From the NCBI RefSeq assembly GCF_002257585.1, contig NZ_CP022743.1, forward strand, positions 4,526,001 to 4,590,000: 64,000 nucleotides of DNA, written 5' to 3'. Positions 19,080 to 39,964 of this stretch are shown piece after piece. The translations under genes and the position numbers were made by a program. The first letter of the stretch is position 1. The number at the start of each line of letters is the position of its first letter. The stretch is from Mucilaginibacter xinganensis. Its GTDB lineage: Bacteria; Bacteroidota; Bacteroidia; Sphingobacteriales; Sphingobacteriaceae. Under the pieces are notes generated by a model that did not search any database, was not told the origin of the DNA, and saw only the letters and a list, made by a program, of their open reading frames with translations.

Positions 19080-19265
19080 CTAAGAGCATCCAAGGAAAGA
19101 CCCATGTCCGGCAGCGCTACAATAGGCTGGGGCACAACCAATTTGGTAAATTCCGCCTGTACAGCTGGTATATCCGCTTAAACCGCCTACAATTTGCTTT
19201 AATTCATTTTTGGTTAGTTCCTTTTTCAGGCTGAGTTTGCCTAATGATTTTTCTTCCTTTTTCAT
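19080..19265 (-). CDS. Double-glycine leader peptide, RiPP/bacteriocin-like precursor
   Basis: The 61-residue product has a leader rich in Lys and Leu (KLSLKKELTKNELKQIVGG) ending in Gly-Gly near residue 28, and a short Gly/Cys/Tyr-rich core with four cysteines. This matches the general form of Bacteroidota bacteriocin-like or rSAM/lanthipeptide-type precursors, in which a transporter peptidase cuts after GG. No modifying enzyme, C39 ABC transporter or immunity gene is adjacent; the neighbours are recG and an M28 peptidase. It has its own upstream AT-rich region and terminator. The leader type differs from the 37.9-39.1 kb family, so it is a separate member. Function is inferred only from the architecture. 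Confidence 0.7.
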   Translation of the reverse strand: MKKEEKSLGKLSLKKELTKNELKQIVGGLSGYTSCTGGIYQIGCAPAYCSAAGHGSFLGCS

Positions 19266-31680: not shown

Positions 31681-31857
31681 TTAGTCATTATTACAGCAAA
31701 TTAAATACTGCCCTGTATTACAATATTGAATCTGGTTAGGGGTGTAAGTACACCCGTAAGTTAACAGCGGTGGCAAAGGCCCGCAAGAGCATCCCGGCGG
31801 CAATTGTACTTTTCCACCATTTACATTTTTCATTTCATTCCTGGTTAGCTTGTTCAT
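31681..31857 (-). CDS. Short Cys-rich double-glycine leader peptide (58 residues)
   Basis: ATG at 31857 opens a 58-codon frame ending in TAA at 31681. The leader MNKLTRNEMKNVNGG is very short, with the family features Leu-Thr, Glu-Met and Gly-Gly at residues 14-15. The core contains GCSCGPLPP, YGCTYTPNQ and a C-terminal YLICCNND, giving six cysteines in total. The leader pattern L(T/S)(K/R)xE(M/L)xxVxGGK is the same as in the 37.9-39.1 kb peptides, so it is a divergent relative. It stands alone between pdxJ and gcvP on the opposite strand. No processing or export gene is adjacent. It is shorter than 60 residues and easily missed by automated calling. Function is inferred from architecture. 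Confidence 0.72.
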   Translation of the reverse strand: MNKLTRNEMKNVNGGKVQLPPGCSCGPLPPLLTYGCTYTPNQIQYCNTGQYLICCNND

Positions 31858-35663: not shown

Positions 35664-37571
35664 TTATTTTACTTCTTCAAAGTCAACATCTGTTACAGTG
35701 TCAGAGTTGCCTTCTGCATTTGGTGCACCTGCGCCACCTTCTGCACCTGGCTGAGCCTGGCCTGCATCGCCTGTTGCTTTATACATCTCTTCAGATGCTG
35801 CATTCCATGCATTGCTCAATTCAGCCTGCGCTGTATCAATATCAGCAAAGTTTTTAGCTGCGTAAGCTTCTTTCAATTTTGTCAGACCTGACTCAATTGG
35901 TGCTTTTTTGTCAGCCGAAATTTTATCGCCGTACTCTTTCAGTTGTTTTTCTGTTGAGAAGATCAGGGCGTCGGCTGCGTTCAGTTTTTCAACTTCTTCT
36001 TTTGCCTTTTTGTCAGCATCAGCATTTGCTTCAGCTTCGTCCTTCATCTTTTTGATTTCAGCATCAGTTAAACCTGATGAAGCTTCGATACGGATTTTCT
36101 GCTCTTTGCCGGTTGCCTTATCTTTTGCAGATACATTCAGGATACCGTTGGCATCAATATCAAAAGTTACTTCTACCTGTGGTACGCCGCGCGGAGCCGG
36201 TGGTATCCCGTCCAGGTGGAAACGTCCAATGGTACGGTTACCTGAAGCAATAGGGCGTTCACCCTGTAATATATGGATCTCTACTGAAGGCTGGTTATCA
36301 GACGCAGTTGAGAACACTTCAGATTTTTTTGTTGGGATAGTAGTGTTTGATTCTATCAGTTTGGTCATTACACCACCCATAGTTTCAATACCTAATGAAA
36401 GCGGGGTAACATCCAGCAACAATACATCTTTAACTTCACCTGTCAATACACCACCCTGTATAGCTGCACCAATAGCAACTACTTCATCAGGGTTAACACC
36501 TTTTGACGGCGCTTTACCGAAGAATTTTTCAACAGCTTCCTGGATAGCAGGGATACGGGTTGAACCACCTACCAAAATCACTTCATCAATATCAGCTGTG
36601 GTATAACCTGCATTTTTCAATGCTGTTTTACAAGGCTCAATGGTACGTTTGATTAAGCTGTCAGCAAGTTGCTCAAATTTAGCACGGGTTAAAGTTTTAA
36701 CAAGGTGCTTAGGCACACCGTCAGAAGCGGTAACATATGGTAAGTTAATTTCAGTTTGAGCTGAGCTTGATAACTCAATCTTAGCTTTTTCAGCAGACTC
36801 TTTTAAACGCTGTAAAGCCATTGGATCTTTACGCAGATCAACACCTTCGTCATTTTTAAATTCGTCAGCCATCCAGTCGATGATCACCTGGTCAAAGTCG
36901 TCACCACCAAGGTGCGTATCACCATCGGTTGATTTTACTTCAAAAACACCATCACCTAACTCAAGGATAGATACGTCATGCGTACCACCACCGCAGTCAA
37001 ATACTGCAATTTTCATATCCCTGTGTGCTTTGTCAAGGCCATAAGCCAGGGCAGCAGCAGTAGGTTCGTTAATTATACGGCGTACTTTTAAGCCTGCAAT
37101 TTCACCGGCTTCTTTAGTAGCCTGGCGCTGTGCATCGTTAAAATAAGCCGGTACGGTAATAACCGCTTCAGTTACTTCATGTCCTAAAAAATCTTCAGCA
37201 GTTTTCTTCATTTTCTGAAGTATCATTGCTGAAATTTCCTGTGGTGTGTACATGCGGTCGCCAATTTCAACACGCGGCGTGTTGTTATCACCTTTAACCA
37301 CTTTGTAAGGTACACGTGATGCTTCTTTGGTAACTTCGTTAAAGTTGTTACCCATAAAGCGTTTTATAGAATAAATAGTTTTTGTTGGGTTAGTGATAGC
37401 CTGACGTTTAGCCGGATCACCAACTTTACGCTCGCCATTGTCAACAAAAGCCACTACTGACGGCGTAGTACGTTTACCCTCACTGTTGGCAATAACTACG
37501 GGTTCGTTACCCTCCATTACCGCAACGCAGGAGTTAGTTGTTCCTAAGTCGATTCCAATTATTTTAGACAT
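35664..37571 (-). CDS. dnaK: Molecular chaperone DnaK (Hsp70)
   Basis: DnaK (635 residues) is the ATP-driven Hsp70 that binds exposed hydrophobic peptide segments with DnaJ and GrpE. The nucleotide-binding domain starts with [19 protein letters not shown] and includes [36 protein letters not shown] and [14 protein letters not shown]. The linker is [19 protein letters not shown], followed by the beta-sandwich and helical lid. The C-terminus TDVDFEEVK keeps the EEVD-like tail common in bacteria. One detail: the phosphate loop reads CGGGTHDVS where DLGGGTFDVS is usual. The gene is monocistronic; dnaJ and grpE are not adjacent. A sigma-54-like element and repeated CTG(C/T)CA words lie upstream. 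Confidence 0.97.
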
Positions 37572-37632: not shown

Positions 37633-37867
37633 TATGCCTTTGGCAGAAAATATAGTTAACAGGCAGACAGAACAAGATTATTCCGTCAGTGATTAAAGAA
37701 AATATGGTGACAGGTTGGCAGAATATCGGCAGTAAATAATACCACGGCAGATTGTATATTCAGACGTCGATATGCAATTGGTTTTCATGCTGAAGTTAGC
37801 CCTAATTTAGCGCAAAAGGGTAAATGTGCTTCCTGTGCATGCCTGATGAAATATACTATAAAAACAA

Positions 37868-37893
37868 CTATTCCCGTTTTAACGCGGGAATAG
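37868..37893 (-). terminator. Terminator after the first GG-leader peptide gene
   Basis: CTATTCCCG pairs with CGGGAATAG across an eight-base loop. On the minus strand it is followed by TTGTTTTTATAG. It lies about 17 bases after the peptide stop. Confidence 0.75.
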
Positions 37894-37910
37894 CTTTACT
37901 TATTCAGTTA

Positions 37911-38105
37911 TTAAAAAATATCAAAACAAGGGTCAGTCGGTGGTTCGCAGGTATGTGTTGTGCCGGGGCACTGGCTAAGGCCTGTGCAACATCCCTGCGA
38001 ATAAGCGTTCCCATTTTGCCCCTGTGCTGCGCAACCAGGATATTTACCACCCTGAACTGCTCTCATTTCCTTTTTTGTCAGCGATTTTCCTAAGTTAGAT
38101 TTCAT
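37911..38105 (-). CDS. GG-leader Cys-rich peptide, paralogue 1
   Basis: The 64-residue precursor has a 20-residue leader MKSNLGKSLTKKEMRAVQGG and a core that begins KYPGCA and includes YSQGCCTGLSQC. Its six cysteines are shared in position with paralogues 2 and 3 up to the fourth cysteine. The double-glycine site at residues 19-20 is the classic cut point for C39 peptidase transporters. The core is neutral to acidic and Gly/Cys-rich, resembling bacteriocin-like or disulfide-rich signalling peptides. It is the promoter-distal member of a minus-strand array between rplQ and dnaK and has its own terminator. No modification, transport or immunity gene is present. Function is inferred. Confidence 0.78.
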   Translation of the reverse strand: MKSNLGKSLTKKEMRAVQGGKYPGCAAQGQNGNAYSQGCCTGLSQCPGTTHTCEPPTDPCFDIF

Positions 38106-38125
38106 AATAGTTTGTTTGTTCTAAT

Positions 38126-38191
38126 GCTTTGGTTTTAACGGAGGTACAAAGCTCATATACCGGTTGTAGTTACTGTTTTAAGATTTTAGGT
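38126..38191 (-). repeat. Conserved upstream block, copy A (before peptide 1)
   Basis: This block, starting GCTTTGGTTTTAACGGAGG on the plus strand, is about 85% identical by eye to 38744-38811. It precedes peptide 1 by 20 bases. GAGCTTTG on the minus strand is one mismatch from a -7 TAnnTTTG box. Confidence 0.65.
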
Positions 38192-38228
38192 GTTTGAAAC
38201 CGGAAACCGGTTTAAATTACTGCACTGC

Positions 38229-38414
38229 TTAAGTACAATCTGCAACGTCTATACATAAAAGCCCGGTTGGGCCGCCGCAGGCATATAGTCCTGTACAACA
38301 TCCATACTGGTATGCCACTCCCGCCTGCCCATAAGCTGCACAACCAGGATACTTACCGCCCTGTACTTCTTTCATTTCTTTTTTAGAAAGTGGTTTTCCT
38401 AAATTCGATTTCAT
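38229..38414 (-). CDS. GG-leader Cys-rich peptide, paralogue 2
   Basis: The 61-residue precursor has leader MKSNLGKPLSKKEMKEVQGG, nearly identical to paralogue 1. The core KYPGCAAYGQ then reads GVAYQYGCCTGLYACGG and ends in a shorter, divergent tail with two more cysteines. The leader and the first 25 core residues are conserved while the C-terminal tail varies, the usual pattern when the leader is read by a shared protease or transporter and the tail defines specificity. It is the middle copy of the array, about 120 bp from each neighbour. No adjacent maturation gene is seen. Confidence 0.78.
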   Translation of the reverse strand: MKSNLGKPLSKKEMKEVQGGKYPGCAAYGQAGVAYQYGCCTGLYACGGPTGLLCIDVADCT

Positions 38415-38430
38415 ATTTTTCGTTTGTTTG

Positions 38431-38460
38431 CGGCTTTGGTTTCAACTGGGTACAAAGCAC
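38431..38460 (-). repeat. Conserved upstream block, copy C (before peptide 2, truncated)
   Basis: CGGCTTTGGTTTCAACTGGG followed by TACAAAGC repeats the left half of the blocks at 38126 and 38744; the right half has diverged. It lies 16 bases upstream of peptide 2. Confidence 0.55.
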
Positions 38461-38528
38461 ACTACCCTATCAGATCAACCGGAAATTAAAACAGATTATC
38501 GCCGGTTAACTACTACTTTATATACCAA

Positions 38529-38723
38529 TTAGCAAGTAGTGCAGGGCGGACAACCGCCAACAGGCTCGCATAAATTATTAACGGTACATTTAATCAATCC
38601 TGTACAACAGCCTTCGGAGTAGAAATTGCCATTTTGCCCTTGCACTGCGCAACCAGGATACTTACCACCCTGAACTTCTCTCAGTTCTTTTTTTGTAAGC
38701 GGTTTACCTAAATTAGAATTCAT
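38529..38723 (-). CDS. GG-leader Cys-rich peptide, paralogue 3
   Basis: The 64-residue precursor has leader MNSNLGKPLTKKELREVQGG and core KYPGCAVQGQNGNFYSEGCC, then TGLIKCTVNNLCEP and a C-terminal tail with three further cysteines (CPPCTTC). The CPPC motif in the tail resembles redox-active or metal-binding dithiols, though in a secreted peptide a disulfide is as likely. It shares leader and core start with paralogues 1 and 2. Its upstream block (38744-38811) is the best match to that of paralogue 1. No biosynthetic enzyme is nearby. Confidence 0.78.
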   Translation of the reverse strand: MNSNLGKPLTKKELREVQGGKYPGCAVQGQNGNFYSEGCCTGLIKCTVNNLCEPVGGCPPCTTC

Positions 38724-38743
38724 AAAATTAATATTTGTGTTTC

Positions 38744-38811
38744 GGCTTTGGTTTTAATGGAGGTACAAAGCTCATATACCATTTTGTGGTTATTGTTTTA
38801 AGATGTTAGGT
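38744..38811 (-). repeat. Conserved upstream block, copy B (before peptide 3)
   Basis: This 68-base block repeats the sequence at 38126-38191, including GAGGTACAAAGCTCATATACC-like and TGTTTTAAGAT segments. Shared upstream DNA implies that gene and promoter were duplicated together. Confidence 0.65.
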
Positions 38812-38882
38812 TATTAAACAGGGGACTATGGCCTCAGCACTTACCCCTCACGCTAATATTTGAGTTTCTGACTTATCGCAAA

Positions 38883-38917
38883 AAAAAAGACGACCTGCAG
38901 TACAGATCGTCTTTTTT
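38883..38917. terminator. Bidirectional terminator after the fourth GG-leader peptide gene
   Basis: AAAAAAGACGA pairs with TCGTCTTTTTT across 13 bases and directly precedes the stop of the peptide gene at 38921. It isolates that gene from the three-copy array. Confidence 0.85.
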
Positions 38918-38920
38918 ATA

Positions 38921-39118
38921 TCAGTAAGCCGGGCAATTAGCCGGGTACTGGCAGGTATTGCTGGGCGGGCACAAAACCAAACCGGTAGTGTAATAACAAC
39001 AACCTAATGTATAGGCTGCCGCAAGCTGCCCTGCCTGCGTCGCGCAGCCTTCAATTTTGCCGCCTTTAACGCTTCTAAGTTCTTCTTTTGTAAGTCTTTT
39101 TCCGAATTGGGTTTCCAT
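38921..39118 (-). CDS. GG-leader Cys-rich peptide, divergent paralogue 4
   Basis: The 65-residue precursor has leader METQFGKRLTKEELRSVKGG, aligning residue for residue with the 20-residue leaders of paralogues 1-3. The core starts KIEGCATQAG and includes AYTLGCCYYTTGLVLC and a tail with two more cysteines. The G-C-A and G-C-C anchors are kept although the spacing differs by a few residues. ATG at 39118 is chosen because it gives the same 20-residue leader; an ATG 14 codons earlier would add a hydrophobic stretch not found in the others. It has its own terminator at 38883 and lies closest to rplQ. Confidence 0.76.
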   Translation of the reverse strand: METQFGKRLTKEELRSVKGGKIEGCATQAGQLAAAYTLGCCYYTTGLVLCPPSNTCQYPANCPAY

Positions 39119-39305: not shown

Positions 39306-39338
39306 AAAACGTCCTGCTCTAATTGAGCAGGACGTTTT
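39306..39338 (-). terminator. Terminator of the ribosomal block after rplQ
   Basis: AAAACGTCCTGCTC pairs perfectly with GAGCAGGACGTTTT across a five-base loop, followed by TTTTG on the minus strand. It lies 24 bases beyond the rplQ stop. Confidence 0.9.
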
Positions 39339-39361: not shown

Positions 39362-39964
39362 TTATTCGCCTTTTTCTGCATTTTCTTCATTTGCAGCTGG
39401 TGATTCCGGAGTTTTTTCTTCAGCAGCATGCTGTGATGCCGGAGTTTCAATTTCTATTTCGTTATCAGCCGTTTCGCCAAGCGCTAAAGGAGCTTCAGCT
39501 ACCGGAGCAGCTTTTTCAGCAGGAGCTTCAGTTTTAGCTTTTGCAGAACCACCACGACGACGGGTTGATTTCTTCTCTACTTTAGCAACATCACTTCCGT
39601 AAACGGTATTGTAATCTACTAATTCAATCATCGCCATTTCAGCGTTATCACCTAAACGGTTTTCCATCTTAATGATACGTGTATAACCACCCGGACGGGT
39701 TGCTATTTTTTGAGCAATTTCGCGGAAAAGAATGGTAACCGCGTCTTTATCCTGTAAGTAGCTAAATACTGTACGACGTGAGTGCGTAGTATCGTTTTTT
39801 GATTTCGTAAGAATTGGCTCAACATATCCGCGTAAAGCTTTTGCCTTAGCTAATGTTGTTGTAATACGCTTGTGTAAAATAAGCGAAGTGGCCATGTTGC
39901 TCATCATCGCCTTGCGATGGCTGTTTGTGCGGCCTAAGTGATTTACTTTTTTTCCGTGTCTCAT
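39362..39964 (-). CDS. rplQ: 50S ribosomal protein L17 with acidic C-terminal extension
   Basis: The first 120 residues are canonical L17 ([56 protein letters not shown]). L17 sits near the peptide exit tunnel of the large subunit. The roughly 75-residue tail is Ala/Glu/Pro-rich and acidic, following a basic RRRGG linker; such tails are common in Bacteroidota and absent from E. coli L17. It is the last gene of the minus-strand ribosomal block but is separated from rpoA by a terminator-like hairpin and a leader with alternative short stems, so it may be controlled separately. Confidence 0.95.

What the first reader, a model, noticed from the sequence alone, without database searches (positions are those of the whole stretch)
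37911..39118. Array of four Cys-rich double-glycine leader peptides between dnaK and rplQ
Four small genes encode precursors with matching 20-residue leaders ending in Gly-Gly and cores anchored by GCA and GCC motifs. Three are close paralogues (KYPGCA, GCCTGL) with conserved leader and core start but variable, Cys-containing tails. That pattern fits secreted RiPP-like or disulfide-rich peptides processed by a shared protease. No maturation or export gene is in the window, so either a remote system acts on them or they form an undescribed family. Leader shape and paralogy are seen; secretion and function are inferred.
Basis: partly seen in the sequence, partly recalled or inferred. Interest (0 to 1): 0.82.

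Follow-up and report, generated by a model that had tools for sequence, protein, structure and literature searches.

The report
Tandem cysteine-rich secreted mini-protein genes
A Mucilaginibacter bacterium carries four side-by-side genes for tiny cysteine-rich peptides that look built for export and disulfide locking by machinery encoded elsewhere in its genome, most likely to act on neighbouring microbes.

Summary
Four minus-strand genes (37911-38105, 38229-38414, 38529-38723, 38921-39118) encode 61-65 aa precursors with 20-aa double-glycine leaders and 6-8 Cys cores. The frames are under purifying selection. Relatives occur in 12 of 149 genomes of the genus, in 11 of those 12 within about 1 kb upstream of dnaK. 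The leaders carry the L-12, E-8, L/M-7, V-4, GG residues that C39 peptidases read. The complete genome holds 22 such precursors, two C39-peptidase ABC exporters with HlyD partners, and three fusions of a C39-like domain without the catalytic Cys stretch to a VKOR oxidase and a thioredoxin domain. All 72 distinct double-glycine cores held have an even number of Cys. So these are most likely disulfide-locked secreted mini-proteins, bacteriocin-like in logic, made by a scattered pathway. No LanC-like protein was found. The predicted fold of one core resembles cystine-knot peptides, but no match is statistically significant. Target, secretion and disulfide connectivity remain untested.

The parts
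37911..38105 (-). Precursor A, 64 aa: leader 38046-38105, core 37914-38045 (44 aa, 6 Cys)
38229..38414 (-). Precursor B, 61 aa: leader 38355-38414, core 38232-38354 (41 aa, 6 Cys); passes NCBIfam TIGR03949
38529..38723 (-). Precursor C, 64 aa: leader 38664-38723, core 38532-38663 (44 aa, 8 Cys)
38921..39118 (-). Precursor D (divergent), 65 aa: leader 39059-39118, core 38924-39058 (45 aa, 6 Cys)
38143..38161 (-). Upstream motif of A (GGTA...GAGCTTTGTACC, starts 56 nt before the ATG)
38449..38466 (-). Upstream motif of B (starts 52 nt before the ATG)
38762..38780 (-). Upstream motif of C (starts 57 nt before the ATG)
37981..38725 (.). 309-nt period tandem duplication holding the 5' parts of A, B and C (127-nt copies at 37981, 38290, 38599; 74% and 82% identical to the first)
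37866..37895 (-). Terminator-like hairpin downstream of A, before dnaK
   Evidence: pattern match only
38872..38928 (.). Inverted repeat just downstream of D with T-runs on both strands: terminator-like
   Evidence: sequence
39306..39338 (-). Terminator-like hairpin after rplQ, upstream of D
   Evidence: pattern match only

Best explanation
The four genes encode secreted, disulfide-locked mini-proteins of about 4.1-4.7 kDa. Each is made with a 20-aa double-glycine leader. A C39-peptidase ABC exporter encoded elsewhere (one of two, each with an HlyD-like partner gene) binds the leader through L-12, M/L-7 and V-4, cuts after GG and exports the core through a type I-like channel. A protein joining a C39-like domain without the catalytic Cys stretch, a VKOR oxidase and a thioredoxin domain oxidises the even number of cysteines; its C39-like domain may dock the leader. 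The conserved core start (GCA...GCCxGLxxC) is the scaffold; the variable tail, diversified by tandem duplication, sets the target. The most likely job is a bacteriocin-like weapon against related Bacteroidota, as for bacteroidetocins. Shown: genes, leader residues, selection, even Cys rule, presence of exporters and oxidases. Inferred: processing, export, oxidation, scaffold/tail roles, antibacterial function.
For: All 4 window leaders have L-12, E-8, M/L-7, V-4, GG, the positions a C39 peptidase reads (passages of PMC6363468); so do the other 16 members kept, with I-12, Q-8 or I-4 in a few, though the extraction pattern demanded these classes. Purifying selection in leader and core. Two C39-ABC exporters with HlyD-like genes and three C39-like/VKOR/thioredoxin fusions in the same complete genome. 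In an alignment the fusions lack the stretch with the exporters' N-terminal Cys, which I recall as catalytic. Even Cys number in 20 of 20 family members kept and in 72 of 72 distinct double-glycine cores, against 174 of 243 control ORFs with 4 or more Cys and 48 of 117 with 5 or more. VKOR in 11 of 12 genomes with the family against 61 of 137 without (Fisher p 0.0016). Double-glycine Cys peptides in 14 of the 30 VKOR loci returned (of 72 genomes with VKOR) and in 0 of 60 dnaK-upstream loci. C39 in 12 of 12 against 95 of 137. Bacteroidetocins: GG leader, Cys core, C39 exporter, and a thiol oxidoreductase whose deletion attenuates the toxin; no immunity gene (passages of PMC6671954).
Against: No transcript, peptide, activity or cleavage data. 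No exporter, oxidase or immunity gene beside the array. The VKOR and C39 associations are not corrected for kinship, and 61 of 137 genomes without the family also have VKOR. Cores are neutral to acidic (net charge -2, -1, 0, 0), unlike many membrane-active bacteriocins (recalled). Which exporter serves these peptides is unknown. The 72 cores fall into only 18 loose clusters, one of 49. Cores are conserved between species (pooled pN 0.13), not fast evolving as weapons often are.
Confidence: 0.6

Rival explanations
1. Same export and disulfide pathway, but the products are not weapons: they are extracellular enzyme inhibitors (for example of competitors' or grazers' proteases), using a knottin-like scaffold with a variable loop or tail.
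For: Neutral to acidic cores. Predicted fold of the B core resembles venom and sponge knottin-type peptides. Another precursor of the same genome carries a squash-inhibitor-like Cys pattern (Pfam Squash E 0.01, 16.3 bits against a cut-off of 22; best PDB match a squash trypsin inhibitor at E 0.065).
Against: The squash-like peptides are other families, not this one. All these sequence and fold matches are below significance. No inhibitory loop is recognisable in this family.
Confidence: 0.2
2. Peptide signals: exported double-glycine peptides sensed by the population, as for Gram-positive double-glycine pheromones.
For: Double-glycine exporters also carry quorum peptides (PMC6363468 passages). 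An upstream motif shared by 15 of 20 family members suggests common regulation.
Against: 6-8 Cys cores and 22 precursors in this genome are unlike known short pheromones (recalled). No receptor or regulator gene was recognised next to the array in the ORF list.
Confidence: 0.12
3. Enzyme-modified RiPPs (lanthipeptide, radical-SAM or graspetide type) with remote maturation enzymes.
For: Weak leader similarity to the radical-SAM target family TIGR04149 (best of 16 members 18 bits against a cut-off of 25).
Against: No LanC-like protein; one SPASM protein, with no double-glycine peptide in its 3.2-kb locus; the even Cys number fits disulfides. ATP-grasp and YcaO enzymes were not searched for.
Confidence: 0.06
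4. Decaying or silent paralogues left by duplication at a permissive intergenic site.
For: Patchy presence in the genus (12 of 149) at an interval with variable content; one G018 copy has only 4 Cys and a short tail.
Against: Purifying selection; no stop inside any of the 22 matches; Cys number stays even.
Confidence: 0.05

Closest known systems
Bacteroidetocins (class IIf, Bacteroidales; PMC6671954)
   Same: Bacteroidota, double-glycine leader, Cys core of similar length with Lys right after GG, C39 exporter plus thiol oxidoreductase pathway, no immunity gene (passages read).
   Different: Leader 20 aa not 15-16; 6-8 Cys not 4; four tandem genes with no linked exporter, oxidoreductase or TM gene; activity unknown.
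NCBIfam TIGR03949, class IIb bacteriocin lactobin A/cerein 7B family
   Same: Leader and core start match; B scores 25.8 against cut-off 21.5, a G018 homologue 24.3.
   Different: A, C and D score below cut-off (20, 19.5, 17.9); Cys-rich core; no evidence of a two-peptide system.
NCBIfam NF047798 leader_Chryseo and NF047792 CCPGW 'putative bacteriocin' families
   Same: Same leader type; 12 of 16 family members scanned match leader_Chryseo at E up to 0.1; a GCCPG motif in two members.
   Different: Best CCPGW score of the 16 is 16.6 bits against a cut-off of 80.
Inhibitor cystine knot peptides (venom, sponge)
   Same: CCxGLxxC followed by a strand pair; the predicted B core overlays the best 13 rows at 1.8-2.9 A over 30-36 residues.
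   Different: Cys order is C-CC-C-C-C instead of C-C-CC-C-C; all Foldseek E-values above 1, best Z 3.9; leader and organism quite different.

Membership tests
Double-glycine C39-processed peptides | Leader with L-12, E-8, L-7, hydrophobic -4 and GG | tested here: met
   4 of 4 window precursors (M at -7 in A and B). The other 16 members also fit, but were extracted by a pattern that demands these classes
Double-glycine C39-processed peptides | C39 ABC exporter in the genome | tested here: met
   two in this genome; C39 in 12 of 12 genomes with the family
Double-glycine C39-processed peptides | Cleavage after GG and export | not testable with these tools
   needs peptide data
TIGR03949 lactobin A/cerein 7B | Score over curated cut-off (21.5 bits) | tested here: inconclusive
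   1 of 4 passes (B)
Bacteroidetocin (class IIf) | 15-16 aa leader | tested here: not met
   20 aa in all four; definition from PMC6671954 passages
Bacteroidetocin (class IIf) | Four similarly placed Cys (at least two in the wider set) | tested here: not met
   6, 6, 8, 6 Cys; definition
Bacteroidetocin (class IIf) | Linked exporter, TM protein and (mostly) thiol oxidoreductase | tested here: not met
   no C39 match in the window; exporters and VKOR fusions at remote loci
Bacteroidetocin (class IIf) | Kills Bacteroidales | not testable with these tools
   -
Lanthipeptide | LanC-like cyclase in the genome | tested here: not met
   0 matches; the control search rings in 1 of 14 genomes
Radical-SAM RiPP (TIGR04149) | Precursor over cut-off (25 bits) and linked SPASM enzyme | tested here: not met
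   13.1 bits or less for the window's peptides; best of 16 members 18 bits
CCPGW family NF047792 | Score over cut-off (80 bits) | tested here: not met
   best of 16 members 16.6 bits
Inhibitor cystine knot (knottin) | C-C-CC-C-C spacing | tested here: not met
   this family is C-CC-C-C-C; the pattern scan hits other peptides only
Inhibitor cystine knot (knottin) | Fold | tested here: inconclusive
   knottin-type peptides dominate the lists, no significant E-value, best Z 3.9
Inhibitor cystine knot (knottin) | Knotted disulfide connectivity | not testable with these tools
   coordinates of the model were not readable here

The most novel reading that the evidence does not exclude
Mucilaginibacter species secrete a large repertoire of cystine-knot-like mini-proteins (22 precursors in this genome) through one shared leader code. 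A membrane oxidase with an inactive C39-like domain reads the same double-glycine leader as the exporter, so that each core is disulfide-locked before the leader is cut: a bacterial route to knottins, with the rplQ-dnaK array as its tandemly diversifying member.
Probability: 0.3. Interest if true: 0.82.

Novelty: new variant of a known kind. Interest (0 to 1): 0.58.

Why it matters
If right, precursor genes in these genomes must be sought without a linked exporter, which mining for gene clusters would miss. The even-Cys rule and the C39-like/VKOR/thioredoxin fusion give a testable model of how bacteria that secrete Cys-rich peptides lock them: leader-guided oxidation. The family also offers a compact natural scaffold with a variable tail, possibly knottin-like, made by a Gram-negative bacterium.

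Tried and rejected
Lanthipeptide and radical-SAM maturation: rejected. ATP-grasp and YcaO enzymes: not searched. Functional link to dnaK or the ribosome: rejected, because the same interval in other genomes holds varied other genes (an acetyltransferase-like one by eye, others) or none, and both ends of the array have terminator-like hairpins. Phage or plasmid origin: no match in plasmids (precursor B only) and, of 32 stretches with a pattern, no confirmed relative in viral contigs. Structured RNA in the interval: no Rfam match. Sigma-70 promoter scan: no excess, 5 found against 5.8 expected; Bacteroidota use another promoter type (recalled). Family outside the genus: with A2 at E up to 0.001, 19 of 399 genomes drawn from the family matched, 13 of them in the genus and 6 outside, in 4 of 25 genera; at most 15 candidates per genome were scored. 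Outside the genus only G215 (E 3.1e-11, L115) looks like a distant relative; I judge the others, from their sequences, to share the leader or to be chance. Kinship of presence/absence: a rplQ tree of 9 carriers and 23 non-carriers needs 5 changes, of which starred branches force 2, and is more clustered than shuffles (4 of 500 as low). Rows without a usable rplQ were dropped: of 60 fetched loci 31 showed rplQ and 23 passed the filter; carriers G044, G045 and G112 were not put in. PDB sequence search with the core profile gave nothing significant; a sponge knottin at E 3.5 was 17th of 19. The second fold model (core A) was weaker: pLDDT 76.6; 5 of 7 Foldseek rows are knottin-type chains, two of them from one entry, all E above 1. 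Rows dropped: one search gave 22 matches; I kept 20 as the family and left out the two weakest (L037, L038) as other cores. Alignment A2 holds 16 of these 20, the fold alignments 12 sequences. Literature: searches listed no paper whose title or abstract start concerns double-glycine peptides of Mucilaginibacter, C39-VKOR fusions, or knottins of Bacteroidetes; this covers only the open-access library held. Listings only, except passages of PMC6671954 and PMC6363468 and the abstract of PMC12648078. PMC10352776 (RiPP mining in Bacteroidales) was listed and not read.

Full report
What is there. The window is 4526001-4590000 of a single-contig 5.30-Mb genome rated 100% complete. Genomes of the same genus carry peptides identical to those of records named Mucilaginibacter, so I take it as that genus. 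Between dnaK (35664-37571, minus) and rplQ (39362-39964, minus) lie four minus-strand ORFs, A 37911-38105, B 38229-38414, C 38529-38723, D 38921-39118. They align without a gap through a 20-aa leader ending in GG; 24 columns are invariant, five of them Cys.

They are genes. A leader regex finds 6 ORFs in the window and none in 20 shuffled copies. Over 12 homologue pairs that I chose across species, pooled pS is 0.40 (leader) and 0.67 (core) against pN 0.12 and 0.13, and differences fall at codon positions 1/2/3 as 32/24/68 in the leader and 71/67/248 in the core. Where computable, dN/dS of these pairs runs from 0 to 0.50; several core pairs are saturated at synonymous sites. Pairs share members, so the pooled figures are descriptive. 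A, B and C sit on a 309-nt period (127-nt copies, 74% and 82% identical to the first). Within A-C, identity is 0.80 (leader), 0.73 (core 21-46) and 0.21 (tail).

Distribution. A profile of the four finds 22 matches in 12 of 149 genomes of the genus at E up to 1e-4, own included; I keep 20 as the family. In 11 of the 12 genomes a copy lies within about 1 kb upstream of dnaK on the same strand, with one other ORF of 175-181 aa between them in G034, G066, G095 and G112. rplQ is seen on the far side in 9 of the 11 (for G016 and G128 through named loci L042 and L040 with identical peptides); the fetched locus shows none in G044 and G112. G045 has its only copy elsewhere; G069 and G092 have extra copies elsewhere. 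In 60 further dnaK-upstream stretches (2.9-4.7 kb), that of G045 among them, no double-glycine peptide is found; rplQ is recognised in 31 and the gap content varies. So the site is a variable interval; presence is clustered on a rplQ tree but needs about five changes.

Upstream element. A near-palindromic GGTAnTGAGCYTTGTACC motif, which I read off these same sequences, starts 50-59 nt before the ATG in 15 of 20 members at 3 or fewer mismatches, against none in 200 rounds of shuffling. Two of the 15 (L023, L033) lie at other genomic places. In the own genome a looser pattern occurs three times only, before A, B and C. D and four others lack it. Promoter, operator or RNA element is open.

Export. 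The eLife paper on LahT (passages) names L-12, E-8, L-7 and a hydrophobic -4 as read by C39 peptidases. The four window leaders have L-12, E-8, M or L-7, V-4 and GG; the other 16 fit too (I-12 in two, Q-8 in one), but were extracted by a pattern that demands these classes. The genome has five C39 matches: two are C39-ABC exporters of 725-726 aa followed by HlyD-like genes; three are C39-like, VKOR, Thioredoxin_4 fusions of 522-559 aa. In an alignment the fusions lack the segment that holds the N-terminal Cys of the exporters, recalled as catalytic.

Cysteines. A profile of 13 leaders finds 23 places in the own genome; 22 are double-glycine precursors and one is not. All 22 cores have 4, 6 or 8 Cys. 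Over all loci held, most of them of this genus, 72 of 72 distinct cores caught by the leader regex have an even count. Control ORFs from the same DNA with 4 or more Cys are even in 174 of 243; with 5 or more in 48 of 117 (from its table), where the double-glycine cores are even in 67 of 67 (from the table). The 72 form 18 clusters at 40% identity by single linkage, one of 49, so the binomial p overstates independence.

Oxidase link. VKOR is found in 72 of 149 genomes of the genus: in 11 of 12 carriers of the family (the miss, G069, is 61% complete) and 61 of 137 others, Fisher p 0.0016; among genomes at least 90% complete and at most 5% contaminated 10 of 10 and 54 of 107. Kinship is not corrected. 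Of the 30 VKOR loci returned (one for each of 30 genomes, 2.2-3.4 kb), 14 hold a Cys-rich double-glycine ORF; of 60 dnaK-upstream loci none does. Only the three fusions of the own genome were read domain by domain. That the fusion oxidises these peptides is inference, by analogy with the thiol oxidoreductase of bacteroidetocins (PMC6671954 passages).

Fold. AlphaFold2 with 12 sequences gives the B core mean pLDDT 86.3, pTM 0.56, with a strand pair, and the A core 76.6, pTM 0.46. Foldseek on B: 21 rows, all E above 1, 13 of them venom or sponge peptides that I recall as knottins. VIA-align: 25 chains aligned, 18 at Z 2 or more, 16 of those such peptides (one, 2kyj, I recall as a disulfide-directed hairpin), best Z 3.9 at 1.8 A over 33 residues. 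This is suggestive only. The Cys order C-CC-C-C-C is not the knottin order. Of the 72 double-glycine cores, 6, all of this genus, match C-C-CC-C-C and 4, one of them (L116) from another genus, match a squash-like pattern. Scans of eight such peptides gave Pfam hits below cut-off for five, mostly conotoxin-type families, and weak PDB hits to venom peptides and squash inhibitors for the three searched (best E 7.1e-4, a tau-theraphotoxin).

Function. I commit to a bacteriocin-like role, since the nearest studied pathway makes such toxins without immunity genes. Inhibitor and signal roles stay open; the neutral to acidic charge and between-species conservation speak somewhat against a classical membrane-active weapon.

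Noticed in passing
window 19080-19265 (-) and 31681-31857 (-): Two more double-glycine, Cys-containing precursors (61 and 58 aa; 4 and 6 Cys in the core) outside the finding.
   Followed up: partly
L014 13702-13857 (+) and L171 1450-1677 (+), own genome: Double-glycine peptides with a squash-trypsin-inhibitor-like Cys pattern; the first lies 1.9 kb downstream of a C39-like/VKOR/thioredoxin fusion.
   Followed up: partly
L160 2647-2814 and 3006-3233; L162 2737-2910 and 3116-3301; L141 2684-2893; L131 1492-1671: Double-glycine peptides of other genomes of the genus with true C-C-CC-C-C knottin spacing; all but L131 lie beside VKOR genes; weak matches to venom knottin families for those searched.
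   Followed up: partly
L016 10224-16540 (own genome): C39 exporter, HlyD-like gene, C39-like/VKOR/thioredoxin fusion and three paralogous double-glycine peptides with CCC cores in one run: exporter, oxidase and peptides in one place.
   Followed up: partly
rplQ-dnaK interval of other genomes, e.g. L048, L073, L061: An acetyltransferase-like gene (by eye) and other varied genes fill the same interval, which looks like a permissive insertion site between two conserved genes.
   Followed up: partly
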